In this document: positions 1 through 62,695 of the stretch, piece after piece
How the letters are laid out: each line of letters begins with the position of its first letter
How positions within the stretch are numbered: the stretch's first letter is position 1
Assembly: GCA_016222825.1 (NCBI GenBank)
Contig: JACRQF010000012.1
Coordinates: forward strand, 1-64,000
Length of the DNA stretch: 64,000 nt
From: Verrucomicrobiota bacterium
Lineage (GTDB): Bacteria > Verrucomicrobiota > Verrucomicrobiia > CAIQCK01
Direction of reading: 5' to 3'
Notes under the pieces: model-generated
Database searches by the model: none
The model's input: the letters and a program-made list of their open reading frames with translations, nothing else
Told to the model about the DNA's origin: nothing
Made by a program: the position numbers and the translations under genes

Positions 1-203
1 CCAGCTTGATGCAGGGCGCGATCGGGTTGACCGAAACTTGCTCCCTTCGGTCTTGAGAGGTAGCCTTGCGGCCGTAGGTAGTGTTCATATTGGCGGGTGT
101 AGCCTTTCACGGCTCGCCCGCCAATACCCATGTCATCTACAGAGCGGCAATCGGAGAAACCTGTCGGACTTTGATCGAATGGCGGCTCTCTTGGGCTTCG
201 AAG

Positions 204-279
204 GTAGGGCGAGCCGTCCCGGCGAGCCGTGAACCGTGCTTTGCGAACCGATGCGGCTCGCCGGGACGGCTCGCCCTAC
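204..279. repeat. Perfect inverted repeat: 25-bp arms gtagggcgagccgtcccggcgagcc, 26-nt loop; REP-like intergenic palindrome
   Basis: Left arm 204-228 is the exact reverse complement of 255-279. Confidence 0.85.
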
Positions 280-628
280 CCGATCCAACATCTTTTGATA
301 AGGGGATTCCGACAGGCTTCGAAGGTCGCCGCTACGGCAAAAAATGCCGTTGACGCGGGGTAAACCGAAGGCGCAAAATCCAAACCAGCGTCAGGAGCGT
401 CGAAGCTTATGACAACGACGGAAGCCAGTCTCGACATCGCGGCAGCACCCTTCGGTGGGGCGAGTCTTTGTCGAACCGTCTCTTCCCCTTGCCAAAGCGA
501 TTCAGAAGTGACTCGACGGAGTCTCGCCTCACCTTCTTGTCCGACGAACTCAACAAACTGCGCCGCACAACTCATCTTCTGCGAGCCGCTGACGGGATTC
601 TCCGGCCTGTAGGAGATTATCGGTATGA

Positions 629-754
629 CGCAAGCAACCTTTTCCGCCACGGAACTTACCTTTTCCGTCGCGCAACCAACCGTCTTCGTGATGCAACCAA
701 CTGGTTGGATACAACAACCAATCGTCTGCGTAACGGAAACAGTCTGTTTCGAGG
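629..754. repeat. Degenerate 21-bp tandem repeat array (at least 6 units; probably extends upstream to ~545)
   Basis: Units at 629, 650, 671, 692, 713, 734 (e.g. cgcaaccaaccgtcttcgtga / tgcaaccaactggttggatac / aacaaccaatcgtctgcgtaa); translates as heptads SNLFRHG TYLFRRA TNRLRDA TNWLDTT TNRLRNG NSLFRGV. Confidence 0.75.
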
Positions 755-871
755 CGTTGAAGACATTGATTTTGATGAAAAATAGCGTTTGTGACGCGAA
801 GAATCCCGTTTCCACACTTCGGAAGGAATTCTCCTGTCTTGGACAAATAATGGAGGGCATATCCAAAACAA

Positions 872-948
872 CTGTAGCGGCGCTCTATGCGCGCCGATCG
901 CTGCCGCCTCATTGTGGGGTCATTGGCGCTCATAGAGCGCCGCTACAG
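872..948. repeat. Inverted repeat, 18-bp perfect arms ctgtagcggcgctctatg/catagagcgccgctacag
   Basis: 872-889 is the reverse complement of 931-948, with imperfect extension into the loop. Confidence 0.85.
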
Positions 949-1028
949 AAACCCTCACGCTTCGCGCATCTCTCGATCTCCCGTCCATCCACAACCCAAG
1001 CCCTCAACCCGAAAGGATAGAAAGACCC

Positions 1029-1658
1029 ATGCCCCAGCTCCGAGTATTGCTCGCATTCTGTAAAGGCGCCGACCATTTCCTTGCGGCCGCCGCCGGCACC
1101 GTCATCGAAGGCATGACCAACAACCCCGCTTTCCCAAATCCGCCCGTGACGATGGCCGCCTTGACGGTCGCGCGTGACGAATTCTCACGGGCGGTTGCTC
1201 TACAGCCAGAGGGAGGCAAACGGGCAACGGCCGAAAAGAAGGAAAAGCGCGCCGCGCTCGTCCGCCTGATGCGCCAGCTCGCCGCCTATGTGCAGCAGGT
1301 GAGCGACAATCACCTGCCGACGCTCCTTACAAGCGGCTTCCACACCGCCAGCAGCAACAGCGTGCAAACACAGTTGGAGAAACCTATCGTCATGGGTCTC
1401 CTCAACGGCAACAGTGGCGAGATCATCGCCCGCGTGAAGGCGGTGGCCAACGCGCGTTGTTACGAGTCGCGAGTCGCCCTTGTCCCTCCCGGCGGCAACC
1501 TCGGCCCGTGGCAAAGCGGCAACTACTCCACCAGTTCCCGTTCCATCCGGGTCAAAGACCTGATTCCCGGCGGCCTCTATGAGATTCAAATCCGCGCCAT
1601 CGGCGGCTCCACCGGCACCAGCGACTGGAGCGACCCCAAGCAGCACAGGAGTTTGTGA
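1029..1658 (+). CDS. Fibronectin type III-like domain protein
   Basis: 209 aa ORF; C-terminal ...SGNYSTSSRSIRVKDLIPGGLYEIQIRAIGGSTGTSDWSDP is FN3-like. Confidence 0.65.
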   Translation: MPQLRVLLAFCKGADHFLAAAAGTVIEGMTNNPAFPNPPVTMAALTVARDEFSRAVALQPEGGKRATAEKKEKRAALVRLMRQLAAYVQQVSDNHLPTLLTSGFHTASSNSVQTQLEKPIVMGLLNGNSGEIIARVKAVANARCYESRVALVPPGGNLGPWQSGNYSTSSRSIRVKDLIPGGLYEIQIRAIGGSTGTSDWSDPKQHRSL

Positions 1659-1813
1659 GGGAGAAGGTGCTGGCACGAACCACGCGCTCTGTTTGCCTTT
1701 GCCGGTTTTAATAATAGGCCTGCCAATCGTGTAAAATGTTCTGGACTCGGCAATAAGCCAGCGTGAAAGTCCGTCATGCCGTCTTACAAGACGTCAATTA
1801 GGCTGTCTAACAA

Positions 1814-2317
1814 ATGTTCGGCATAAAGATGAAACCAATCCGACGCGCCCAGATGAACGGCATCCTCGATCGTCTTGTTCCGGAGTGGAGAGAAACTGGT
1901 GGATGGACCTATAATGCCTTTGTTACTTCCCCATATTTGCGACTTGGATCATCGGAATCGGTAGCAGACCTTCACGCCGCTACAGAGATCGCTCTCGCTT
2001 ATTTCCAACCACATTCGATCCATGTATTCCATGATGGGATTGCGGCGTGGAGAACCAAGTGGCGTGGCAACAGGGGTTACTTCTGCTCTTGCGCCGAAGA
2101 AGTGATAAGCTTGATAGATTCCGAGGCATTCTTCCGTGATCCCAACGACAAGGAAGACAACTACAATGTTATTGGAGACACGGGGGATTGGATGATTACA
2201 TATTGTCACGAAGATGATTGGTTTCTGTTCGCTCCTCAAAGAGATCTCGATTTCCTTACTCAACGATTAAAAGCCGAACAATCGCATGGAGGCGACGGCG
2301 GTAACGCCGGTTTTTGA
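1814..2317 (+). CDS. Hypothetical protein, possible integron cassette ORF
   Basis: 167 aa ORF followed by an attC-like structure. Confidence 0.55.
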   Translation: MFGIKMKPIRRAQMNGILDRLVPEWRETGGWTYNAFVTSPYLRLGSSESVADLHAATEIALAYFQPHSIHVFHDGIAAWRTKWRGNRGYFCSCAEEVISLIDSEAFFRDPNDKEDNYNVIGDTGDWMITYCHEDDWFLFAPQRDLDFLTQRLKAEQSHGGDGGNAGF

Positions 2318-2359
2318 TTTCAGGCTTGCTTCCGCCGCGCCTCATGCGAAGCGTTAGGC
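2273..2359 (+). other. attC-like recombination site
   Basis: Left end GCCGAACAATCGCATGGAGGCGACGGCGG pairs with the reverse complement of the right end, GCCTAACGCTTCGCATGAGGCGCGGCGG; right core GTTAGGC at 2353-2359; one extra G in the left arm (extrahelical-base-like). Confidence 0.6.
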
Positions 2360-2368
2360 CACAAAGCT

Positions 2369-2719
2369 GTGAATATACGCATTGTTGATATTCCACCAGG
2401 AGAAGCACCAGAGCATGTGAGGAAAGCTTGGGTCGGTCTCGTGCTACCGCTTGCTGAGGGCGAAGGCGGTAGGCGCACATTGCCAGTCTTTGGTGTTATT
2501 TCTGCCCCAAGGACGAGATGGAGGATTTTCCTGGCTTTGCTATTGCGCCGATTTACGCGGGCAGACGGATACGTCGTGGACGCTCCGACTGCTATCGAAA
2601 GACTAGCTCAGTCCTCTCCTGAGGCAGCCGATTGGTGGAGAAGCAACGCGCCTCATCTCCTACAGGAGGGGCAGCGATTCGTCTTTTACGGAGAGGCTTA
2701 CCGGGAGGAACGCGATTGA
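2369..2719 (+). CDS. Hypothetical protein, possible integron cassette ORF
   Basis: 116 aa ORF starting 9 nt after the attC-like core. Confidence 0.5.
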   Translation: MNIRIVDIPPGEAPEHVRKAWVGLVLPLAEGEGGRRTLPVFGVISAPRTRWRIFLALLLRRFTRADGYVVDAPTAIERLAQSSPEAADWWRSNAPHLLQEGQRFVFYGEAYREERD

Positions 2720-2816
2720 GGCAAAGCGTAAGGCATCTCACGTCACTGGAGCTACCCGCGCCCCGCGCTGGCGCGCGGTTCGTGGTAACTCAGTTCGGGC
2801 GTTAGACTGCAATCGC

Positions 2817-3158
2817 ATGCCTGTTGAACGAAACACCGGTCGCAATCCGACGGCCAAAGAGTTGGCCGAAGCCAAGCGCATTGCGGCGTTGCCCAAAGAA
2901 GTTCAACGTCAACACCCATCCGCGCTGCCCGCTGACCCGTCGAAGCTCGACCACATCAACACCTATGGATGGTTGCCGGAGTTTTACATAGACAAGCCTT
3001 TTCGGTGTCGCGATTGCGGCAAGGAGGAAATCTGGAAGGCTGCGGACCAGAAGTGGTATTACGAGGAAGCAAAAGGCCATACGGACGCGACAGCGGTCAG
3101 GTGTCATGATTGCCGCAAAGCGCGAAAGGCGAATGCACGCCGGGGCGGAAACGGCTGA
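2817..3158 (+). CDS. Probable zinc-ribbon domain protein
   Basis: 113 aa; FRCRDCGKEEIW...VRCHDCRKARK (two CxxC motifs). Confidence 0.65.
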   Translation: MPVERNTGRNPTAKELAEAKRIAALPKEVQRQHPSALPADPSKLDHINTYGWLPEFYIDKPFRCRDCGKEEIWKAADQKWYYEEAKGHTDATAVRCHDCRKARKANARRGGNG

Positions 3159-3301
3159 CCGATGCGCTCCAGCGGACAACGGGGAGGTTGTGGAAGCTTT
3201 TGAAGCGGCGTCTCCGTTTCCCGTGTTTGTCTTCCATTGCTCAAGCCGGGCGTGTGAACCATCGGGGTGTGTTGGCAGGTAAGGACATGAGCTTCGATCA
3301 A

Positions 3302-3342
3302 GCCGAAGGCTCTGGACTGCTGTAGGCACTACAGCTTTCGGC
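3302..3342. repeat. Palindromic element gccgaaggctctggactgctgtag-gca-ctacagctttcggc
   Basis: 7-bp inner stem gctgtag/ctacagc and 6-bp outer stem gccgaa/ttcggc. Confidence 0.6.
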
Positions 3343-3430
3343 GCGGAGAGGGCGCGGAGTTTCGCAGAACCGGTTTTGATCTCGCATCCGATTTCTGGAG
3401 GCGTATGATCGGCCGCAGTTCAAGGAGACA

Positions 3431-5014
3431 ATGAATCCAGTCACGGAGCCTATGAAGACGATATTTGCGATTCTGATGGTTGTTTTGGTTTTGGAGGCGG
3501 GGACGGCGTTGGCGCAGGAGAAGGTTGCGCAGCCGACCGCATCCAAGCTCAAGGCGATGCTCGCGGACTTCGACAAGTATGCAGCCAAGGCGAGGGCGGA
3601 CTGGAGGATTCCCGGCATGGCGGTCGGCATCGTGAAGGATGGCAAGCTTATCTTCGGGAAGGGGTATGGAGTGAAGACCCAGGGCGGCAACGACCCGGTC
3701 ACGGAGAACACCCTCTTCCAGATCGGCTCGACGTCGAAGGCTTTTACCTCGACGCTGGCCGCGATGCTTGTGGACGAAGGGAAGGTCAAATGGGAGGACA
3801 AGGTGGTTGACCACGTGGCGGACTTCAGGATGCATGACCCTTGGGTGACGCGGGAGTTTCAGGTCATGGACTTGATGGCCCAGCGCAGCGGGATGCCGGC
3901 CTATGCCGCCGACACGCTTTTCGTTCTGGGCTTCGACCGCGGGTATATCAAGCGGGCAATCCGCCATATCAAACCGGTGAGCAGTTTTCGCGGGAGCTTC
4001 GCTTATGTGAACAATCTCTGGCTCGTGGCGGCGGGGATCGTCGAGCGATACACCGGCAAGACGTGGGAGCAGGCGCTGAAGGAACGTATTTTTGATCCGC
4101 TGGGCATGACGCATTCGTCGGCGGATATGCAGTCCTTCCTGAACGCCGGGGACGTGTCCTCGGTGCATGCGGCTGAAGGCGAGAAGGTGGTTGCCTTGCC
4201 CAAGAACTGGGAGTTTCTGGAGTGGAGCTACATTGCCGGCCCCGCGGGCGCGATCAACTCGAACATCAAGGACATGGCGAAGTGGCTGGCCTTGCAGATG
4301 AATAACGGGAGGGTCGGCGAGAAGCAGTTGGTCTCGGAGGAAAGCATGCAGATGCTGCATTCGCCGAAGACCATCGCCAACCCGATCGGCGACCTGCATA
4401 AGAACCAGTTTTATTGCCTGGGCTGGATCTACAAGGAACATTCGCCGTATCCGATCATCTGGCACAATGGCGGCACGCAGATGAAGACGATGCTCGCTTA
4501 TATCCCGGAACAAAAAATAGGCGTGATCGTGCTTTCGAATTATGTGACCAACCTGCCGGAGCTTCTGGCGTTCAGGTTCTTTGACCAGTATGCAGGCAAG
4601 CCCTCCAAGGACCTGAGCGCCGAGGGGCTGGCTGAGTGGAAGAAAAAGCAGAAGCAAGAAAAGGCCAAGAAGCCGGTCCCGCCGAAGAATCCTCTCGCGG
4701 CCATGCCGTTGGAGAACTACGCAGGAGTTTATGCGAATGATGTTTACGGCAGGATCAGTGTCTCTATTGTTGGCGGGAAATTAGCGGTCGTAATAGGCCC
4801 CAAGAAAGTGAAGATAATCCTCAGTCATTGGGACAGGGATGTTTTCGAGGCGCATTGGCCCATGCCCGACTCGGATATGGAAACCAACTTCGCGAGCTTC
4901 CAGGCAAGCCCGGAAGGCAGGGTGACGGGCATCACGCTTGATTCACTGAACCAAGGGGATGATATGGGAGTCTTCAGCCGTGTCGAGACTGCCACAGATG
5001 GGGCCAAGAAATAG
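3431..5014 (+). CDS. Serine hydrolase, beta-lactamase class C/PBP-like, exported
   Basis: Signal peptide; STSK (SxxK), YVN, HNGGT motifs. Confidence 0.9.
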   Translation: MNPVTEPMKTIFAILMVVLVLEAGTALAQEKVAQPTASKLKAMLADFDKYAAKARADWRIPGMAVGIVKDGKLIFGKGYGVKTQGGNDPVTENTLFQIGSTSKAFTSTLAAMLVDEGKVKWEDKVVDHVADFRMHDPWVTREFQVMDLMAQRSGMPAYAADTLFVLGFDRGYIKRAIRHIKPVSSFRGSFAYVNNLWLVAAGIVERYTGKTWEQALKERIFDPLGMTHSSADMQSFLNAGDVSSVHAAEGEKVVALPKNWEFLEWSYIAGPAGAINSNIKDMAKWLALQMNNGRVGEKQLVSEESMQMLHSPKTIANPIGDLHKNQFYCLGWIYKEHSPYPIIWHNGGTQMKTMLAYIPEQKIGVIVLSNYVTNLPELLAFRFFDQYAGKPSKDLSAEGLAEWKKKQKQEKAKKPVPPKNPLAAMPLENYAGVYANDVYGRISVSIVGGKLAVVIGPKKVKIILSHWDRDVFEAHWPMPDSDMETNFASFQASPEGRVTGITLDSLNQGDDMGVFSRVETATDGAKK

Positions 5015-5119
5015 GTTCTTCCGCTCTCTTGGCAGACAAGTCAGGAGAGCGATTCACATTTGCAGTTGAGGGCGCGTATTTAGCACGTCCCAGGGGACGC
5101 GGGAGAAACCGGAGGCTTC

Positions 5120-5573
5120 TCAAATGACGGGGCGAGTTGGCCGCTCGGCGCCGGGTGTGCCATCCGGCGCTTTGCCGGCCAGCAGGCGGTCGGTGAGCGC
5201 CTGGAAATAGTCGGCTTTCAAAGGTTTGTGAAGGAACGCGCGCGCCGGAGCTGGCCATGATCTCGGTCTTGTCGTCGAAGGTGTAGCCGCTCATAAGGAC
5301 GATCTGGATGTGGGGCTGCGCATGCCGCAGCCGTTGCGCCACGACAACGCCGTTCATGTCGTCCATGAAATAATCCACGAAGGCGAGGTCGAACGTGCGA
5401 TGCGCCGCCAACTCCAAGGCGAGCGAACCGCGCGACGTCACTGCGATGGCATACTGGCCGGGGCGGAATAAGTGAGGAAAGACATCGAGGACGTCGGTGT
5501 CGTCATCTACGATCAGGATTCGCGCGGCGGGGGCTTGCGGTAAGGGTTGCTGGGCGTGGGGTTGTTCCTTCAT
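5120..5573 (-). pseudogene. Response regulator receiver protein, frameshifted near its C-terminus
   Basis: ILIVDDDTDVLDVF...FDLAFVDYFMDDMNG...VLMSGYT...IMASSGA then a frame change; FLHKPLKADYFQALTDRLLAG continues in another frame and ends at 5120. Confidence 0.75.
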
Positions 5574-5868
5574 TCCGGTTCCTTGATTGCGGGGCAGTCA
5601 GTTGCATCATCGCACCGGCCATCCGATGCATCTCTTTCAGAGATGTGTCGCTATTGGCTGGTGTTCCCGGCGTAGCCGCTGCGCGTCAACGCTGGGCTGA
5701 GTGATTGAATCCCATTGGGATTCGTTCCGGCATCCGTGTGAATCGGTGTTTCATCCGCGGCTGGGTCCTCGTTGCGGTTGCTTCCTGATGCCTGGCCAAA
5801 ACATCCCGTGATGCTGGCGGTCATGGCGACGTCACACAGTTGTCGCCGGACACGAGGGGGAGGGGAGA

Positions 5869-9186: not shown

Positions 9187-10581
9187 TTAGAACTCCAGCA
9201 CGTCGTTGATGGCGGGGACATGGACTTGCGAGCGGGGGAAGATGTCGCGCAACGCGGCGGCGAGTGCGTTCGATTGCTCCGCTTCGCCGTGCACGACGCA
9301 GATGTGCTGCAACGAACCGGTCACGCGCCGCGCGTAGTCCAGCAGTTCACTGCGGCCGGCGTGCGCGCTGAACGCCGAGATCACCTCGACGTGCGCCTTC
9401 ACGTCGTGCTCCTCGCCGAAGATGCGCACGCGCTTCTCGCCGGCGATGAGCCGCGCGCCGAGCGTGTGCTGCGCGCAGAAGCCGACCATGATGACGGTGT
9501 TGCGCTCGTCGCCAAGGTTGTTGTGGAGATGGTGGCAGATGCGCCCGGCCTCGGCCATGCCCGACGCGGAGATGATGATGCACGGTTCCTTCAGGTCGTT
9601 GAGCGCGATGGACTGATCCACGTCATGGATGTATTTCAGCCGCTCCAGGCCGAACGGATTATGCCGTGCCATCAACTGCTCGTAGATGTCGAGGTTGAAG
9701 CACTCCGGGTGGAGCCGGAAGATTTCGGTGACGTTCACCGCGAGCGGGCTGTCCACGAAGATCGGCAGCTCCGGGATGCACTTCTCCTCCGTCAGCCGGT
9801 GCAGCGCATAGACGATGTGCTGGGTGCGGCCGACGGCGAAGGCCGGGATGATGATCTTGCCCTTGCGCTCAATGGTGCGGTTGACGATGGCGCAGAGCCG
9901 GTCGTTGACGTAGTCCATCGACTCATGCTCGCGGTTGCCGTAGGTGCTCGATATCGCCAATACGTCTATGTCCTCCATCGGCGCCGGGTCGCGCAGCAAG
10001 GGGTCGCAACCGCGGCCCAAGTCACCGGTGAAACCGATCCGTAGTCTTCGGTCACCTTCTCGCAAATCCATGATGACTTCCGCCGATCCCAGAATGTGGC
10101 CCGCATCGCGGAACCGGAACTGGACGCCATCGGCGATCCAGAGCGGGCGCTCGTAGCCCAGGCCGACGAACTGCCGGATCGTTGCCTCGGCTTCCTTCTC
10201 GGTGTAGATCGGCGCGACGGGCGGCAGGCCCTTCCTGGCGCGCTTCCGCGAAACGAATTGGGCGTCGTAGCGCTGCACGTGGGCGCTGTCCTGGAGCATC
10301 ACGGCGGCGAGGTCTCGGGTGCCGTTGGTGGCGTAGATGTTGCCGGCGAAACCGCGCTTCACCAGCGTCGGCAGCGCGCCGGTGTGGTCAATGTGCGCGT
10401 GGCTCACCACGACGGCTTCGACGGATCGCGGGTCGAAAGAAAAGCTGTTGTTGCGTTCAATGGATTCCAAGCGTCTGCCTTGGAAAATGCCGCAATCCAG
10501 CATCAATTCCGTGCCGTTGATGTTCAACAGGTGTCGAGAACCAGTGGTGGTTTGCGCTGCTCCGCAAAACGTCCATTTCAT
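9187..10581 (-). CDS. MBL-fold/beta-CASP RNA-processing-type metallohydrolase
   Basis: MKWTFCGAAQTTTGSRHLL...LDCGIFQG...VVSHAHIDHTG...VHGEAEQ. Confidence 0.92.
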   Translation of the reverse strand: MKWTFCGAAQTTTGSRHLLNINGTELMLDCGIFQGRRLESIERNNSFSFDPRSVEAVVVSHAHIDHTGALPTLVKRGFAGNIYATNGTRDLAAVMLQDSAHVQRYDAQFVSRKRARKGLPPVAPIYTEKEAEATIRQFVGLGYERPLWIADGVQFRFRDAGHILGSAEVIMDLREGDRRLRIGFTGDLGRGCDPLLRDPAPMEDIDVLAISSTYGNREHESMDYVNDRLCAIVNRTIERKGKIIIPAFAVGRTQHIVYALHRLTEEKCIPELPIFVDSPLAVNVTEIFRLHPECFNLDIYEQLMARHNPFGLERLKYIHDVDQSIALNDLKEPCIIISASGMAEAGRICHHLHNNLGDERNTVIMVGFCAQHTLGARLIAGEKRVRIFGEEHDVKAHVEVISAFSAHAGRSELLDYARRVTGSLQHICVVHGEAEQSNALAAALRDIFPRSQVHVPAINDVLEF

Positions 10582-10825
10582 ATATTAAGCTCATCACATG
10601 TAATATTAAAAATATAAGGAATAAACAACAGGCAATACAAGAAGATGCTCAGTGTGTCAACGGAACGGTCCAGAACACCGCTGCTTTCAGTGCCAGCAGC
10701 TTTTATGTGACAGTGCTGCTTTCCAGTCTGAATGGTGCGGGCGTGTCTCTTCTTGTTCAGAGCTTCAGATATTGGTTTATGCTATTCAACCACAGCACGG
10801 ATGTGGTAGAAACAGCGAGTGAAGC

Positions 10826-12313
10826 GTGGAGAAACCTCCATCGAATGAAAGGCAAGGATTGGGAGCATTGAAACGCGAGAAGTCAGCTAGAGTTGATCGT
10901 GTGTTTTGTGAAACCTCGAGAAGGTTTGGGAACGGTGCTTCGATCAGGGGAACAATTTCGGTTTCCAAGTTGCGCACTGTCCACCCTTTGGCCGCGCGAC
11001 GGGGGTGCCGTGGCCTAATTATTCTGATCTTCGATTCTCTTCGGAAGGACTTCGAGTCGATTTGCTCTCAGAATGGTGTGCCGAATTTGCCGATGTTCAA
11101 CCGGCTGAAATCCATGACTCATCCTTTGTTGCACGCGTGTTGTGGTTCATTCCCCACCGTTCCCATGCGAACGGACCTGTTGACGGGGCAACTGTCTTTT
11201 CTGCAAAGACGTTGGGCAAGACCGCTGAATACGGATTTTGTGTTTACAAAGTCCGCTGCGAATGTTGGTATCAAGACGCGGCTCATAACAGATAACTACG
11301 TTATCATTTTGCCACAGTTAGGCGGTATGATGGATGAATTCTTTGATGGTTGCATCTTCATACGAGGCTCAGGTTCAGATCCTTGGCAGGAAACTGTGAC
11401 TTGGAGTAGCCTGCATAGTTCTCGTCGCCCATCGCGCTCACTCAGTTTCGAACAGCAGTTCCTGGTCAATGTGCAAGCTTGGGAAAGTGCGGGAGGACCT
11501 CCCTATCGCCGACTATTTGATGAGGCGGGCCGCGCTTTGAGGCAAGAGATCACCAATGAACGCTTTATATTTTGGGTTGATTGCTTCTCTACGCACGAGC
11601 CTTGGATTTCTCCGCAACAACTAGATCCGAAAAACCTGCCGGATGACGAGCCGATCTCGCCACCTTACGGAGGGACAAATGGATATGCCCCGCATCAACT
11701 TGCCGCTCTTCGCATGCAATACGCGAAGCGTATTGCTGCCGTAGATGCGGCGGGGTTGCCTTTCATTTCTGTGCTACAGGAGGCGATGAAGTCTGGTGAC
11801 GTGGCCCTTGCTGTTCTGTCAGATCACGGCTTCTTGTTCGGAGAATATGGGCTGGTCGGGAAACTCGACAGTTGTCCGGTGCTTCCTCCGCTTTATGATC
11901 TGGTAGCGTGGCTGTCTCCACACTTTGAGAATCGGGTTGATGATAACCGTCTTCTTCAGCCTTCTGATTTCACGAATGTATTCTGCGAACTACTTGGCAC
12001 GTCTTTTCCTTCCGCCCCGACACAGAATTTACCTGATCGCCCACAAGTAATCGGCCGCAACAGCCCGGAAGTTCCCACCATTACCATCGCAACACGAGAG
12101 GGGTTTGCACTGGTGTTTCGAGATGACCTAAATACTTTCCCCAGATGGTATGCACAATCTAAGCTTGATGCATCAAGAGCTTGGGAGATGCAAGGAGAAC
12201 CGACAATCCCACGCGGAGTGATCGATTCACGCCAACTACGAATAATACTTGGACAACAACCATGGGTTGAGAACTTTCGGAGTTCAGTAAACCAATTAAT
12301 AGGAGCAACATGA
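10826..12313 (+). CDS. Alkaline phosphatase/sulfatase-superfamily hydrolase (Thr at the nucleophile position)
   Basis: LIILIFDSLRKDFES, FPTVPMRTDLLTG, VDCFSTHEPW, LSDHGFLFGEYGLVGK; start codon uncertain. Confidence 0.75.
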   Translation: MEKPPSNERQGLGALKREKSARVDRVFCETSRRFGNGASIRGTISVSKLRTVHPLAARRGCRGLIILIFDSLRKDFESICSQNGVPNLPMFNRLKSMTHPLLHACCGSFPTVPMRTDLLTGQLSFLQRRWARPLNTDFVFTKSAANVGIKTRLITDNYVIILPQLGGMMDEFFDGCIFIRGSGSDPWQETVTWSSLHSSRRPSRSLSFEQQFLVNVQAWESAGGPPYRRLFDEAGRALRQEITNERFIFWVDCFSTHEPWISPQQLDPKNLPDDEPISPPYGGTNGYAPHQLAALRMQYAKRIAAVDAAGLPFISVLQEAMKSGDVALAVLSDHGFLFGEYGLVGKLDSCPVLPPLYDLVAWLSPHFENRVDDNRLLQPSDFTNVFCELLGTSFPSAPTQNLPDRPQVIGRNSPEVPTITIATREGFALVFRDDLNTFPRWYAQSKLDASRAWEMQGEPTIPRGVIDSRQLRIILGQQPWVENFRSSVNQLIGAT

Positions 12314-14076
12314 ACAACGGCCAGGTTGATTTTCTCGTTCTAGCACCACTTGCCGAGGAAATCGAGGCGCTATCTAAAACGCTGGGGTTTTCAATTACGT
12401 CATCTCGTGTCCTAGAGAATGGTGCCACTTGCTATTCGTTAGAACTTCCAAACAACGAGGGGAACGGGATCGTCCAAGTGTGCGTAGTAAAGCTCATTCA
12501 CCAAGGTGTGTTGAGGGCAGGCGTGACAGCATCTAGGCTTATAGCACATTGGCGCCCGTGGTGTGTGGTATCGTTTGGAATCGCTGGCGGATTTGTGGGC
12601 GACGACGTAGAACTCCGCGATGTTATTGTGCCTGAAGTCGTGATTTACTACGAACCAGCAAAGGAAACGCGGCGCGGTCGTAAGTCTAAGCGCCAACCAC
12701 GATTCTTGCCTATTCCGACTTCTCTCTTGCTACAAACAATCTGTCGGAGGATTCAGCCGTCAGCTATGAAGGTAATCGGACCGGGGATAAGACTGGAAGG
12801 TTTACTCGCCTCTGGCGAGAAAAAGATAACCGACAGGGAGGCGCCAGTTCGTGAGGCTCTGGGGGATTATAACGATAAGATTCTGGGAGTCGAAATGGAG
12901 GCGGCGGGCGTGGGGGCCGCAACTCTAGAGTTTCCAGAATACTGTCCAGTCCCACATTTGCTTGTAGTTAAAGGCGTCTCCGACGATGCAACCATCGCTG
13001 ACAATCCTAAGAACTCTGAGCCAGAGAAGATTAAGCGAAAGGAGAATCGCCGCATGGCAGCAGTGAATGCGGCGCAATTCCTCAAAATGGTCATGGAGAA
13101 CTCGAAACCAGAGCATCCAGTGAAGGTTGAGGTGTCACCTGCAAGCAAAGTGAAAGAACTGGCACGCTCAATTCAAACGAAGATTCCGAATATCTTCCTC
13201 GCTCGGCCGCTGAGACAAGACGATCTGATCCGAGCGATCAACCGGTTGGATCGCCTTCCGACTGTATATTATCATTGGAGAATCATGCATAGGCATGTTC
13301 ACTGGGTGGACTTTTGCCATATTCTCTTAATGAAACGGCTTCAACAGATCGGATTGCCCGTTGAAGCCTTGATAACAGACGGTGAGAGACCCTTTCAGCA
13401 AGAGGCGCGTTCACATACTGGGAAGCTGGTCGAGGCAGTGCTGGGGCCGCAGGCTCATATAAGTTGGCATAGTGAGATTGCAAAAGAAGCGGGTAAATAT
13501 GCTCAACATGCCCGTGATAATGGTTTTGATGAAACCGCGCGGCAAACACTTCTTAGAGCAGGGCACATCCTCGGAGTCCGGGCAGGCAATCTCATTACTG
13601 AGCAATGGTTGCACTATATTGCTTGGTCAGCTCGTGCTACAGGTCGTTGTCTTGTTCTCTTCTGGGACCGTCATGCGAGGATGTATAAACAGTTATTGAG
13701 TATAATCTCGCTTGACCCTCTTCTTATTCCTGGCCCTAGTTTTGAACTGAACGGAACACTTGGAAAATACGATGAGCCAGGCAAAGGTCTTGTGATAGAT
13801 CCGCCGCGGTTCGATTCGATAATTGGCTGGCTTGAGAAGTCGCCGCCCGCCTCATACGTTTCGGATCTCGCTAGGTATTTGACGCTTGACGAACTGCCAA
13901 AGGTGCCTCCCGCGAAGGAATGGGTGGTCACTGAGGGAAGGGAACTCCTAGAAAAATATCCGCGGCTCAGAAACAGGCTCGCTTCACCACTGAGGAATCG
14001 AAAATTCAACATAGCCACTTTTGGTATTCTAGACGCGATGCTGAAATGGAACAGGATCTTCTTCAAGGACTGGTAG
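12310..14076 (+). CDS. Nucleoside phosphorylase-superfamily domain fused to a putative degenerate class I (TyrRS/TrpRS-like) aminoacyl-tRNA synthetase module
   Basis: N-term VVSFGIAGGFVGDDVELRDVIVPE, LEGLLASGEK, GVEMEAAGVGAAT; C-term TVYYHWR..HVHW..CHILLMKRLQQIGLPVEALITD and PLLIPGPSFELNGTLGKYDEPGKGLVIDPPRFDSIIGWLEKSPPASYVSDLARYLTL. ATGA overlap with the upstream gene. Confidence 0.7.
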   Translation: MNNGQVDFLVLAPLAEEIEALSKTLGFSITSSRVLENGATCYSLELPNNEGNGIVQVCVVKLIHQGVLRAGVTASRLIAHWRPWCVVSFGIAGGFVGDDVELRDVIVPEVVIYYEPAKETRRGRKSKRQPRFLPIPTSLLLQTICRRIQPSAMKVIGPGIRLEGLLASGEKKITDREAPVREALGDYNDKILGVEMEAAGVGAATLEFPEYCPVPHLLVVKGVSDDATIADNPKNSEPEKIKRKENRRMAAVNAAQFLKMVMENSKPEHPVKVEVSPASKVKELARSIQTKIPNIFLARPLRQDDLIRAINRLDRLPTVYYHWRIMHRHVHWVDFCHILLMKRLQQIGLPVEALITDGERPFQQEARSHTGKLVEAVLGPQAHISWHSEIAKEAGKYAQHARDNGFDETARQTLLRAGHILGVRAGNLITEQWLHYIAWSARATGRCLVLFWDRHARMYKQLLSIISLDPLLIPGPSFELNGTLGKYDEPGKGLVIDPPRFDSIIGWLEKSPPASYVSDLARYLTLDELPKVPPAKEWVVTEGRELLEKYPRLRNRLASPLRNRKFNIATFGILDAMLKWNRIFFKDW

Positions 14077-14079
14077 CAG

Positions 14080-14982
14080 ATGGGTGTCCATGGCTACGAT
14101 AATTGTGCGGCAGTGAAACTGACATCCCCCTACAGCGAAGCAGGGGCTAGAATTGGCTCTGCAATCAAGGTGTGCTTGGAGCAGTATCCTTCGCTGCGGG
14201 TGGGTGGGTCTTGGGCGTCAGGAGAACCACATCTCCCAGCGGTCTGCGGCGGTTGGATTCATTCATTGTCCGACATTGATTTGGTGCTAGTTAATGATCT
14301 CGCTGTGTCCGAGCGAGGCGGCATCATCTCACACATTCAGGGGGAGGCCAAACAGGCTCGCGTTCGGCTTGCTGGCATATCGATGAAGAAACAACATGGG
14401 GTAACGGATTCGTTGCATCCCGCCGAGGTGAGGCCAACAGATGAGAACAATCGCTGTCAATTAGACCCTGTTTACTACTTACACTTTTGGAGCGCAATCA
14501 GCTCATTCGAATGTTCAATTCGTGAACGACGATTTGGAATGGAGAATCGTCGATGTGTTGCTTCTTATTCCGCGAGCAAGTTTTTCTTCACACTGCTCAG
14601 GAACATCGGTGTTCTACGCGGGCACAGATTCCAATCTTACGCTGCCCTTTCCCGGTGGGCAAAGGCGCTGTGGACTGAGTTGCCGGTGTGTGAGGCTTAC
14701 GATATCAAGGTTGGGAACATCCCAGAGCTAAGCGATGTCGTAGTGGAGGGACTCATTGGGAAAGACACAGTAAGACTTGTTCTTGATAACGAGAAGATGT
14801 CGGGCGCAATACCAGGAGTCACGTCTTTGGCTGCTGACGTGCTCGGCTCACTTTACGGTAGCGAAAGCTTGTGTCCTACGCAGTATCTGCAAGCGGCGCG
14901 AAATGCAGTGTATGCGAGGCATTTGTCAGCGTTTGTTGACTATGTGGAATCGAAGTTGGTGCGACCGAATGCCCTAATCTGA
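14080..14982 (+). CDS. Pol-beta-superfamily nucleotidyltransferase
   Basis: GGSWASGEP...SLSDIDLVLVND (GSxxxG...SDIDL motif). Confidence 0.65.
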   Translation: MGVHGYDNCAAVKLTSPYSEAGARIGSAIKVCLEQYPSLRVGGSWASGEPHLPAVCGGWIHSLSDIDLVLVNDLAVSERGGIISHIQGEAKQARVRLAGISMKKQHGVTDSLHPAEVRPTDENNRCQLDPVYYLHFWSAISSFECSIRERRFGMENRRCVASYSASKFFFTLLRNIGVLRGHRFQSYAALSRWAKALWTELPVCEAYDIKVGNIPELSDVVVEGLIGKDTVRLVLDNEKMSGAIPGVTSLAADVLGSLYGSESLCPTQYLQAARNAVYARHLSAFVDYVESKLVRPNALI

Positions 14983-14988
14983 AACACG

Positions 14989-15969
14989 ATGAGTGGCTCT
15001 ACTCAAAACGACTGTGCATTCTTGTTTCTCACCGAGGCCTGCAATTTATCGTGCAAGCACTGTTATGTGTCTGCCCACCCAAGTAAAGGTGGAGAGATGC
15101 CTGCTTCCATAATCCGACGTGCATTCGAGGTGTGTGCGCAGCTCGGAATCAAACACCTTCGGCTTACCGGTGGCGAGCCAACAATTCATCGAGAGTTTGA
15201 CTCAATTCTTGCCGAGGCCACAAGCCGTGGATTCAAAGTTGGCTTAGTTACCAATGGCTTACGTTTTCTACGTATGGCCGGTGTTGAACTGTTGCTCAAG
15301 CAACTGTCCCGGTGCTGGGTGAGTGCATACGGGCCTACGGCGGCGATTCACTCTCATATTGGAGGAGAACTCGCTCCTTCATTTAGTGAGGTGCTATCTC
15401 GGGTTGGTGAGTGGACGCAGGGAGGGCATGCCATAGGCGTGAGCGTCCTGCTAAAGCCGGGATCTGCGATGGAGTCTGCCGGGTTGCTTGAGCGAGCACT
15501 TGCCACAGGAGTTCGTCGGCTGCGTTTTATACCGATGCAACCTGACGGAAGAGGGGTGAGATATTTTGCAGGAGACTGGTCTGAGTGGCCGGAAGAACTA
15601 GCTCAGTTATTTCAGAGGTTGCGCAATACGTCCCTATGTGAAGAATTTCAAGAAATCACGCTGAATGACCCATTTGACCTTGCCGCACGCTTTCCAGATA
15701 AAATGGATTCCTGTTTCTTACGCCGTCGCCGTATGTGGTCTGTCGTCCCAACGGGTGACGTTTATCCGTGTTGTTTCGCGGCTTATGAAACGAAACGGAA
15801 ACTCGGAAATATAATGGAGGATGACATAATTCGACGTTTGCAGGGGAAGCTGCCGCTTGCAGAAAGAGTGCCTCCTTGCAGAGCATTTAGTAGATCTTTT
15901 TGGCCGGGAATTCCGGGAAAATTAGTAAGCTGTCCAGTCTCTCATATCGCTCTACGAGCCAGAGGCTAA
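14989..15969 (+). CDS. Radical SAM protein with Cys-rich C-terminus
   Basis: EACNLSCKHCY (CxxxCxxC), LTGGEPTIH, C-terminal ...DVYPCCFAAYET...CRAFSRSF...SCPVS. Confidence 0.92.
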   Translation: MSGSTQNDCAFLFLTEACNLSCKHCYVSAHPSKGGEMPASIIRRAFEVCAQLGIKHLRLTGGEPTIHREFDSILAEATSRGFKVGLVTNGLRFLRMAGVELLLKQLSRCWVSAYGPTAAIHSHIGGELAPSFSEVLSRVGEWTQGGHAIGVSVLLKPGSAMESAGLLERALATGVRRLRFIPMQPDGRGVRYFAGDWSEWPEELAQLFQRLRNTSLCEEFQEITLNDPFDLAARFPDKMDSCFLRRRRMWSVVPTGDVYPCCFAAYETKRKLGNIMEDDIIRRLQGKLPLAERVPPCRAFSRSFWPGIPGKLVSCPVSHIALRARG

Positions 15970-16035
15970 TTGGCAAAACAACTCGCAACTATCGCGAACT
16001 TTGCAAGAACACCAACGCGCATGCTTGCGCGACTG

Positions 16036-16083
16036 CCGCGAGCCGGTGGTCATCTGCGCTGCGCCGTAAAAAGTCCATTTCAT
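16036..16083 (-). pseudogene. Relic of the N-terminus of a second MBL/beta-CASP gene
   Basis: Reverse-strand translation MKWTFYGAAQMTTGSR vs MKWTFCGAAQTTTGSR of the gene ending at 10581; similarity stops after 16 codons. Confidence 0.7.
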
Positions 16084-61335: not shown

Positions 61336-61977
61336 TTACTTGCTGTTGCCGGGCTTCTTCTTATTGTCGGGAGCTTCCTTCTCCCACGGGACGACCCACT
61401 TGTAGAGGATGTGTATGTTGCTGTCGAAATTGCTCTCGTGGCCTTCCTCGCCCTTCGTGGTCAGCACGACCACCTGTGCTGGTTTGGCGTCGCCCATGTC
61501 GAACTCGTGCGAGACGATGCGCGAGCCGGGCTTGAGCTTCTCAAGTTGTGGCATCAACCGGGTGTTCAGCGTCGGCATCAGGAAAAGGAACACGACGGTG
61601 GCCTTGCTCAGGTCGAGCTTGAAGATGTCCTTCTGCTGGATGGAGACCAGATGCTCCACCTTATTTTCGCGGACGTTGGCGAGCGAGTCCTTGACGCGCT
61701 GCGGGTCAATGTCAACACCGACGGCTTTCACGCCGTATCGCTTGGCGGCTGTGACAACAACACGACCGTCGCCGCAGCCGAGGTCATAGACGATGTCGCC
61801 GGGTTTGATCTCCGCCATCTGCAATAGCTTGTCCACGACGACCTGCGGTGTCGCCACGTAAGGAACATCGCGTTTTACTGGCGCAGCCTTGGTAGGCGCG
61901 TCTGCGGCTCCGGTCGGGAGATTGGCGAAAAGGAACAGAGATGTGAGTGTGAGGCGAAGTGAATGAAGAGAAGTCAT
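61336..61977 (-). CDS. Exported SAM-dependent methyltransferase-like protein
   Basis: MTSLHSLRLTLTSLFLFANLPTGAADA signal peptide; IVYDLGCGDGRVVVTAAKRYGVKAVGVDIDP. Confidence 0.85.
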   Translation of the reverse strand: MTSLHSLRLTLTSLFLFANLPTGAADAPTKAAPVKRDVPYVATPQVVVDKLLQMAEIKPGDIVYDLGCGDGRVVVTAAKRYGVKAVGVDIDPQRVKDSLANVRENKVEHLVSIQQKDIFKLDLSKATVVFLFLMPTLNTRLMPQLEKLKPGSRIVSHEFDMGDAKPAQVVVLTTKGEEGHESNFDSNIHILYKWVVPWEKEAPDNKKKPGNSK

Positions 61978-62008
61978 TGTCGTTTGCCAAGAGGGAATGA
62001 TTGAGCCA

Positions 62009-62686
62009 CTACGGAAGGGATGGAGCGGTGCGCGCTTTCTCCCACGGGACGACCCATTTGTAGATCGTGTGCTCGTGGGTTTCGAGGTCGTCTTCATCGG
62101 CCGTGCCGTTCTCCGGGGGGATCTTGACGATTTGGAGAGGCTTGGCGCCTTCCATGTCGAAATCGTGGGACAGGATGCGGGAGCCGGGCCGGAGTTTCTC
62201 CAGTTGCGGCATCAACCGGACATTCAGACTGGGCAGCAGGTAGAGACACACCACCGTGGCCTCGCTCAGGTCGAGCTTGAAGATGTCCTTCTGTTGGATG
62301 GAGACCAGATGCTCCACCTTGTTGGAGCGGACGTTGGCGAGCGAGTCCTTGATGCGCTGCGGGTCAATATCGAAACCGACGCCCTTGACGCCGTATCGTT
62401 TGGCCGCCGTCACCACGATGCGGCCATCGCCGCAGCCGAGGTCATAGACCACATCGCCGGGTTTGATCGCGGCCATCTCCAGCATCTTGTCCACGACGAC
62501 CTGCGGCGTGGGCACGAACACCACGTCGGGTTTGTTTGTCACGGTGTTCGCAGGTGGCGGGGCGGGGGAATCCGCTGCCCCGGCCGGAAGCGCGAACGTC
62601 AAAGCTGCGAGCAGAGAGACTCGGCACAGCATGACGAGAAACAGGTTCCACAACATAGAACCGAACATCGAGGTGTTGGATTTCAT
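62009..62686 (-). CDS. Exported SAM-dependent methyltransferase-like protein, paralog of 61336-61977
   Basis: Signal peptide; VVYDLGCGDGRIVVTAAKRYGVKGVGFDIDPQRIKDSLANVRSNKVEHLVSIQQKDIFKLDLS. Confidence 0.85.
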   Translation of the reverse strand: MKSNTSMFGSMLWNLFLVMLCRVSLLAALTFALPAGAADSPAPPPANTVTNKPDVVFVPTPQVVVDKMLEMAAIKPGDVVYDLGCGDGRIVVTAAKRYGVKGVGFDIDPQRIKDSLANVRSNKVEHLVSIQQKDIFKLDLSEATVVCLYLLPSLNVRLMPQLEKLRPGSRILSHDFDMEGAKPLQIVKIPPENGTADEDDLETHEHTIYKWVVPWEKARTAPSLP

Positions 62687-62695
62687 GGCTGATTG

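What the first reader, a model, noticed from the sequence alone, without database searches (positions are those of the whole stretch)
10826..15969. Four-gene, translationally coupled, lower-GC island with an unfamiliar enzyme combination
Seen: four same-strand genes with a 4-nt ATGA overlap (12310-12313) and gaps of 3 and 6 nt, in visibly AT-richer codon usage than the flanks. Products: AP/sulfatase-superfamily hydrolase, nucleoside phosphorylase fused to an aaRS-like module, nucleotidyltransferase, radical SAM enzyme. Inference: either a small pathway making a nucleoside/aminoacyl-modified metabolite, or a nucleotide-centred conflict/defence system, since phosphorylase-like domains and nucleotidyltransferases are recurrent in bacterial conflict systems. 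I know of no named system with this set.
Basis: partly seen in the sequence, partly recalled or inferred. Interest (0 to 1): 0.85.

Follow-up and report, generated by a model that had tools for sequence, protein, structure and literature searches.

The report
Acquired four-gene cassette with nucleosidase effector
A bacterium has recently picked up a compact block of four enzyme genes, one of which resembles the nucleotide-destroying weapons of bacterial antiviral systems, in a combination not found in any genome, plasmid or virus collection searched here; what it does still has to be tested.

Summary
The four-gene island is real. ORF coordinates, the ATGA overlap and the 3- and 6-nt gaps are exact. 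GC3 is 46-53% against 71-90% in flanking genes. It is an insertion: two congeneric genomes have the empty site. The foreign stretch (~10,440-16,033) replaced the 5' end of a beta-CASP RNase-type gene and is bracketed by a 50-bp direct repeat (10532-10581 / 16034-16083).

Products:
- (1) AP/sulfatase-superfamily hydrolase with Thr in place of the sulfatase Cys.
- (2) Catalytically intact MTAN/PNP-fold nucleosidase, closest to a CBASS effector (PNP-SAVED, 33%), fused to a 326-aa domain with no detectable relative; the 'aaRS-like' reading failed its test.
- (3) 300-aa protein recognisable as a nucleotidyltransferase only by motif.
- (4) Radical SAM/SPASM protein.

No homologue of gene 3 or of the gene 2 C-terminus was found, so conservation of the set is untested.

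Best explanation (45%): a mobile nucleotide-centred conflict cassette with a PNP-type nucleosidase effector. Main rival (30%): a radical-SAM metabolite pathway in which the nucleosidase removes 5'-deoxyadenosine or trims a nucleoside. The tree leans to the first, but an AU test does not exclude a housekeeping origin (p 0.16). A PADLOC 'effector' hit proved uninformative because E. coli Mtn hits it equally.

The parts
10440..10581 (-). 5' end of the MBL/beta-CASP gene (9187-10581) replaced by divergent, lower-GC sequence; left edge of the foreign DNA (boundary approximate)
   Evidence: identity to three congeners falls to 0.70-0.82 and GC to 0.53-0.55 in 10396-10581, versus mostly 0.78-0.96 in 9187-10395 with dips at 9187 and 10024
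10532..10581 (.). left copy of the 50-bp direct repeat (first codons of the MBL gene)
10582..10825 (+). leader of the cassette; no convincing ORF, no Rfam match, no sigma-70-type site above chance
10826..12313 (+). gene 1 (P0001): alkaline-phosphatase/sulfatase-superfamily hydrolase, Thr at the FGly-Cys position; true start uncertain
   Evidence: PF00884 3e-6; alignment with 27 relatives
12310..13095 (+). gene 2 N-terminal domain (P0002 aa 1-262): MTAN/PNP-fold nucleosidase, catalytic residues intact, basic substrate-side loop
   Evidence: PF01048 7.5e-11
13096..14076 (+). gene 2 C-terminal domain (P0002 aa 263-588): no detectable relative; proposed sensor/partner module
14080..14982 (+). gene 3 (P0003): putative pol-beta-type nucleotidyltransferase (VGGSWASG...SLSDIDL motif), no detectable relative
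14989..15969 (+). gene 4 (P0004): radical SAM protein with short SPASM domain
   Evidence: PF04055 1e-14, PF13186 1.4e-5
16034..16083 (.). right copy of the 50-bp repeat: the displaced native 5' end of the MBL gene; right edge of the foreign DNA

Best explanation
The island is a small mobile cassette encoding a nucleotide-centred conflict (probably anti-phage) system. Shown: it is foreign DNA inserted at the 5' end of a conserved RNase-type gene and absent from the three congeneric genomes. Its four genes are tightly packed on one strand. Gene 2 carries an MTAN/PNP-fold nucleosidase domain with its catalytic residues in place. Inferred: on infection, the gene 2 nucleosidase cleaves the N-glycosidic bond of a phosphorylated purine nucleotide, most likely (d)ATP, and so starves phage and cell. 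Its orphan C-terminal domain acts as the sensor or regulatory module, in the place that SAVED occupies in the CBASS effector that is its closest relative. The gene 3 nucleotidyltransferase either makes a nucleotide signal that switches the effector on or adenylylates it to hold it off. The gene 1 Thr-nucleophile phosphohydrolase removes that signal or modification. The gene 4 radical SAM enzyme modifies the nucleotide or the effector; its role is the weakest part of the model.
For: The closest sequences to the P0002 N-domain are the Nostoc PNP-SAVED protein next to an annotated CBASS oligonucleotide cyclase (33% over 251 aa), a Streptomyces plasmid PNP, a PNP inside a 1383-aa verrucomicrobial open frame, and an Agrobacterium protein annotated HNH endonuclease. 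A tree separates these plus P0002 from housekeeping MTANs at 100/99. Catalytic Glu12, Glu172-Met173-Glu174 and Asp197 equivalents are all kept, and the loop PEVVIYYEPAKETRRGRKSKRQPRFL has net charge +5 against -4 in E. coli Mtn, with the YY[DE] motif shared by most of the conflict-type proteins. The cassette is horizontally acquired, with an empty site in two congeners and absence of gene 3 from the third. PNP effectors that destroy (d)ATP occur in CBASS, Detocs, pAgo, DRT8 and NLR-like systems (PMC10952713; PMC11249213).
Against: With AMP nucleosidase added and a futalosine-type row removed, the tree is less resolved; forcing P0002 in with housekeeping MTANs costs only 3.8 log-likelihood units (AU p 0.16). 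The conflict-type sequences were chosen because they matched P0002. Their loops are less basic than that of P0002 (net -2 to +2). The PADLOC effector model matches E. coli Mtn just as well, so it is no evidence. No known sensor domain or CD-NTase is recognisable. I know of no PNP system with a radical SAM enzyme. The flanking genes identified are housekeeping, not defence genes. No second copy of the cassette exists to show that the four genes travel together.
Confidence: 0.45

Rival explanations
1. A compact biosynthetic or tailoring pathway. The radical SAM/SPASM enzyme and the nucleotidyltransferase build or modify a nucleoside- or peptide-linked metabolite, gene 1 removes a phosphate, and the gene 2 nucleosidase clears 5'-deoxyadenosine (the inhibitory by-product of radical SAM chemistry) or trims a nucleoside intermediate.
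For: The best solved-structure relatives of the nucleosidase domain are MTA/SAH nucleosidases, a fold known to hydrolyse 5'-deoxyadenosine (own knowledge). P0004's nearest solved relatives are small-molecule and peptide maturases: PqqE, cytosylglucuronate decarboxylase, SkfB, MoaA. The AU test does not exclude an MTAN origin.
Against: The P0002 substrate-side loop is strongly basic and unlike MTAN; its nearest sequences are conflict-type. No transporter, precursor peptide, carrier protein or regulator in the cassette. The 326-aa C-terminal fusion is unexplained.
Confidence: 0.3
2. A toxin-antitoxin-like module: the gene 2 nucleosidase is a toxin held inactive by nucleotidylation by gene 3 (as MNT proteins do to HEPN toxins), with gene 1 reversing the modification.
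For: Short co-directional genes with overlapping or near-overlapping ends; NTase motif in gene 3, absent from 1226 other ORFs scanned; acquired as a self-contained cassette.
Against: No match of P0003 to MNT/NTP_transf_2 or any Pfam, NCBIfam, PADLOC or PHROGs model. Four enzymes including a radical SAM protein exceed a usual TA pair.
Confidence: 0.12
3. An orphan or decaying chance assembly: unrelated acquired genes that happen to lie in one AT-rich insertion and do not act together.
For: No other copy of the set was found anywhere; gene 1 has an unclear start.
Against: All four ORFs are intact, share one GC3 signature, are packed with -4, +3 and +6 nt spacing, and gene 2 keeps its catalytic residues.
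Confidence: 0.13

Closest known systems
CBASS with a PNP-SAVED (Cap17-type) effector, e.g. Nostoc pNPM2 NPM_RS36660/36655
   Same: MTAN/PNP-fold nucleosidase domain at the N-terminus of a two-domain protein, encoded beside a nucleotidyltransferase; 33% identity over 251 aa.
   Different: No SAVED domain and no recognisable CD-NTase; extra AP-superfamily hydrolase and radical SAM enzyme.
Detocs (PNP effector DtcC; ATP nucleosidase)
   Same: Same effector superfamily; proposed nucleotide-depleting action (PMC11249213, PMC10952713).
   Different: Detocs is described as a three-gene defensive two-component system; none of the four genes here matches such components.
MTA/SAH nucleosidase (Mtn/Pfs)
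   Same: Fold and catalytic residues E12, E172, M173, E174, D197.
   Different: Below the NCBIfam cut-off (38.9 of 169 bits), basic loop, 326-aa C-terminal fusion.
Sulfatase family PF00884 with Thr (GSFPT-x-P-x-R-T-D...TG), e.g. L042, L062, L067
   Same: Metal-site motifs FDS and SDHG, and a Thr in place of Cys, shared with this verrucomicrobial subgroup.
   Different: True sulfatases need Cys/Ser for formylglycine; only 28% identity to the best relative.
SPASM radical SAM proteins (PqqE, MoaA-like, SkfB, mycofactocin MftC)
   Same: CxxxCxxC core and a SPASM-type Cys cluster.
   Different: Far below every equivalog cut-off listed (best 62.9 of 325 bits); best relative in 289 sampled Verrucomicrobiota genomes 29% identical by E-value.

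Membership tests
CBASS | CD-NTase (oligonucleotide cyclase) gene | tested here: not met
   P0003 matches no Pfam, NCBIfam or PADLOC model even at E up to 10 in Pfam and PADLOC
CBASS | effector with a cyclic-nucleotide sensor (SAVED or similar) | tested here: not met
   P0002 C-terminus has no PADLOC/Pfam match; the Nostoc control protein is recognised as SAVED in the same scan
PNP-type immune effector | MTAN/PNP-fold domain with catalytic Glu/Met-Glu/Asp | tested here: met
PNP-type immune effector | phylogenetic placement with immune PNPs rather than housekeeping MTANs | tested here: inconclusive
   100/99 split, but AU p 0.16 with AMP nucleosidase included
PNP-type immune effector | cleavage of ATP/dATP | not testable with these tools
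   needs enzyme assay
Detocs | two-component (kinase/receiver) partner genes | tested here: not met
   no such domain in the four genes
MTA/SAH nucleosidase equivalog | score above NCBIfam cut-off | tested here: not met
   38.9 vs 169 bits for PRK05584
Sulfatase (formylglycine) | Cys/Ser in C/S-x-P-x-R | tested here: not met
   Thr in GSFPTVPMRTDLLTG
Alkaline phosphatase/sulfatase superfamily | PF00884 above gathering score, metal-ligand motifs | tested here: met
   27.2 vs 25 bits; FDS and SDHG motifs
Class I aminoacyl-tRNA synthetase (Tyr/Trp type) | profile similarity above shuffled sequence; HIGH and KMSKS | tested here: not met
   no score above shuffles against TyrRS/TrpRS profiles; hhalign probability 0.1-0.2%; no Pfam match; other class I types not built as profiles
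Pol-beta-type nucleotidyltransferase | hG[GS]...[DE]h[DE]h motif | tested here: met
   VGGSWASGEPHLPAVCGGWIHSLSDIDL; the pattern used (gap 8-24) occurs in 0 of 1226 ORFs of the fetched loci. The gap is longer than the canonical spacing and the third carboxylate is not identified
Pol-beta-type nucleotidyltransferase | profile or structural match | tested here: inconclusive
   no profile match; AlphaFold model unusable, pLDDT 33
Viperin (pVip) | score above NF038283 cut-off | tested here: not met
   54.7 vs 180 bits; P0004 also has a SPASM domain
Radical SAM/SPASM | PF04055 and PF13186 above gathering score | tested here: met
   55.5 and 25.7 bits

The most novel reading that the evidence does not exclude
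An undescribed conflict system in which a PNP-type nucleosidase effector with a new sensor domain is run by a divergent nucleotidyltransferase together with a radical SAM enzyme and a Thr-type phosphohydrolase, possibly using a radical-SAM-modified nucleotide as its signal, and travelling as a 5.5-kb cassette that integrates into the 5' end of a beta-CASP nuclease gene.
Probability: 0.25. Interest if true: 0.8.

Novelty: new variant of a known kind. Interest (0 to 1): 0.5.

Why it matters
PNP nucleosidase effectors are a recurrent immune weapon shared by several systems and by eukaryotes (PMC10952713, PMC11249213). If this cassette is one, it would add a new sensor domain, a divergent nucleotidyltransferase and, for the first time as far as I know, a radical SAM enzyme to that set, and suggest modified nucleotides as immune signals. 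If it is instead a metabolite pathway, it is a minimal four-enzyme cluster with two uncharacterised folds. Either way two of its protein regions have no detectable relatives.

Tried and rejected
(1) aaRS-like domain: by eye, RHVHW and TLGKYDEPG recall HIGH and KMSKS, but profiles built from 15 mainly TyrRS and 12 mainly TrpRS sequences score the domain no better than shuffles; rejected as unsupported.
(2) PADLOC 'PN-superfamily effector' hit as evidence of defence: rejected after a control, since E. coli Mtn and the host's own MTAN hit as well.
(3) Viperin hit: rejected, far below cut-off and SPASM present.
(4) Homologue hunts: P0002 or P0003 in plasmids, phages, viral contigs, and up to 289-384 Verrucomicrobiota genomes per query and two genome-contig scans by short peptide patterns, the second with a hand-made degenerate pseudo-alignment. 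Those scans need near-exact 8-residue matches, so their silence is weak evidence.
(5) Weak P0003 hits in G505 and Nonomuraea were inspected and are chance: an antisense frame over an ABC permease gene, and a low-complexity stretch of a sensor-kinase-like protein.
(6) AlphaFold2 of gene 3 and of the gene 2 C-terminus without an alignment: pLDDT 33 and 38, unusable; no fold search was run on them.
(7) Mesorhizobium plasmid cluster with alkaline phosphatase plus radical SAM genes: the phosphatase is not detectably related to P0001.
(8) Other copies of the cassette ends in the host genome: none beyond the two repeats.
Full report
OBSERVATION. The four ORFs, their ends, the ATGA overlap and the 3- and 6-nt gaps are exactly as described. 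The drop in GC is sharp: 50-51% per kb inside against 56-69% per kb around it, and GC3 of 0.46-0.53 in the four genes against 0.71-0.90 in eight neighbours. Gene 2 has a good Shine-Dalgarno (AGGAG), the others weaker ones. The start of gene 1 is doubtful, because relatives align only from about residue 62. There is no tRNA, no Rfam match and no promoter-like site above chance.

WHERE IT SITS. Sampled genome sizes and groupings suggest the host is a member of Verrucomicrobiota, class Verrucomicrobiia (inference; no name is given). Three congeners lack gene 3. In two of them the left flank (a metallo-beta-lactamase/beta-CASP/RMMBL nuclease gene) runs directly into the right flank; the third lacks the island but is rearranged there. 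In the window the first 50 bp of that nuclease gene occur twice, at 10532-10581 and 16034-16083, 80% identical. The right copy resembles the congeners and continues into native intergenic sequence. The left copy, and about 140 bp of the gene 5' end, are divergent and AT-richer. So foreign DNA from about 10440 to 16033 was inserted and replaced the 5' end of the gene, leaving the gene open. No integrase is apparent in the insert and no other copy of its ends was found in the host. The replaced 5' end implies the cassette previously sat at the same gene in another, lower-GC genome (inference).

GENE 1 is an AP/sulfatase-superfamily protein (PF00884). The catalytic Cys of sulfatases is Thr here (GSFPTVPMRTDLLTG), as in three verrucomicrobial relatives (L042, L062, L067), while the FDS and SDHG metal motifs are kept. 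A Thr nucleophile at this position is typical of phosphodiesterases and phosphotransferases of the superfamily (own knowledge), so a phosphate substrate is likelier than a sulfate ester.

GENE 2. The N-terminal 262 residues are an MTAN/PNP-fold nucleosidase (PF01048; nearest solved structures are MTA/SAH nucleosidases). Of six positions compared with E. coli Mtn, all are kept except Ser76, which also varies among relatives. Its closest sequences are a CBASS PNP-SAVED effector and other non-housekeeping PNPs, and a tree groups it with those at 100/99. This is not proof: when the AMP nucleosidase is added, an AU test does not reject placement with MTANs (p 0.16). The loop that in MTAN lines the 5' side of the substrate is +5 here and -4 in E. 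coli Mtn, and carries the YY[DE] motif seen in most of the conflict-type sequences, whose own loops run from -2 to +2. I read it as a pocket for a phosphorylated 5' end (inference). The C-terminal 326 residues match nothing. The aaRS idea was tested with profiles made from TyrRS and TrpRS of relatives and failed.

GENE 3 matches no library. It carries VGGSWASGEPHLPAVCGGWIHSLSDIDL, a pol-beta nucleotidyltransferase-type motif found in none of 1226 other ORFs scanned. The spacing is longer than canonical and the third carboxylate is not identified. GENE 4 is a radical SAM protein with a short SPASM domain, far from all equivalog cut-offs listed; its best match in 289 sampled Verrucomicrobiota genomes is 29% identical.

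MECHANISM. Best reading (0.45): a mobile nucleotide-centred conflict cassette. Shown: horizontal insertion, intact co-directional genes, intact nucleosidase catalytic site, kinship of the nucleosidase to PNP-type effectors (leaning, not proven). Inferred: cleavage of (d)ATP or a related nucleotide; the C-terminal domain as sensor; gene 3 as signal maker or adenylylating regulator; gene 1 as the off-switch; gene 4 as modifier. Main rival (0.30): a radical-SAM metabolite pathway in which the nucleosidase removes 5'-deoxyadenosine or trims a nucleoside. The basic loop and the fusion speak against it, but not decisively.

NOVELTY. The searches found no described system with this gene set, in libraries or papers. 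PNP effectors are known in CBASS, Detocs, pAgo, DRT8 and NLR-like systems, so the conflict reading makes this a new variant of a known kind. Two defining CBASS features tested negative and Detocs partners are absent, so it is not filed under either. Without a second copy of the cassette, joint function remains an inference from gene packing and shared composition.

Noticed in passing
9187-10581 and 16034-16083: The 5' end (~140 bp) of a beta-CASP/RMMBL nuclease gene has been swapped for a divergent copy by the insertion, leaving a 50-bp remnant of the native 5' end 5.5 kb away; the gene is now read from a new upstream region. A possible integration hotspot at the 5' end of this gene.
   Followed up: partly
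L027 (congener G291, contig 31): In the third congener the same junction is broken by a rearrangement that places TolC-like, succinate dehydrogenase and helicase genes between the two flanks (12 kb apart, one flank inverted).
   Followed up: partly
L110 (G452 C9:15000-27000), 1383-aa open frame: A verrucomicrobial PNP domain at the C-terminus of a very long open frame, related to the gene 2 nucleosidase (31% over 244 aa); probably another conflict-type PNP protein.
   Followed up: no
L109 (G289 C28:148000-150500): A congener carries its own non-housekeeping PNP-domain protein (364-aa open frame) grouping with cyanobacterial plasmid PNPs.
   Followed up: no
61339-62695, - strand: Two adjacent or overlapping open frames that both match SAM-dependent methyltransferases (PF13847), in a lower-GC stretch (59-60%); apparently a tandem pair.
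   Followed up: no
1-5000: GC is also lower here (54-59%) than in the rest of the window; contents include a serine beta-lactamase/DUF3471 protein (3380-5011) and a response regulator (4977-5597).
   Followed up: no
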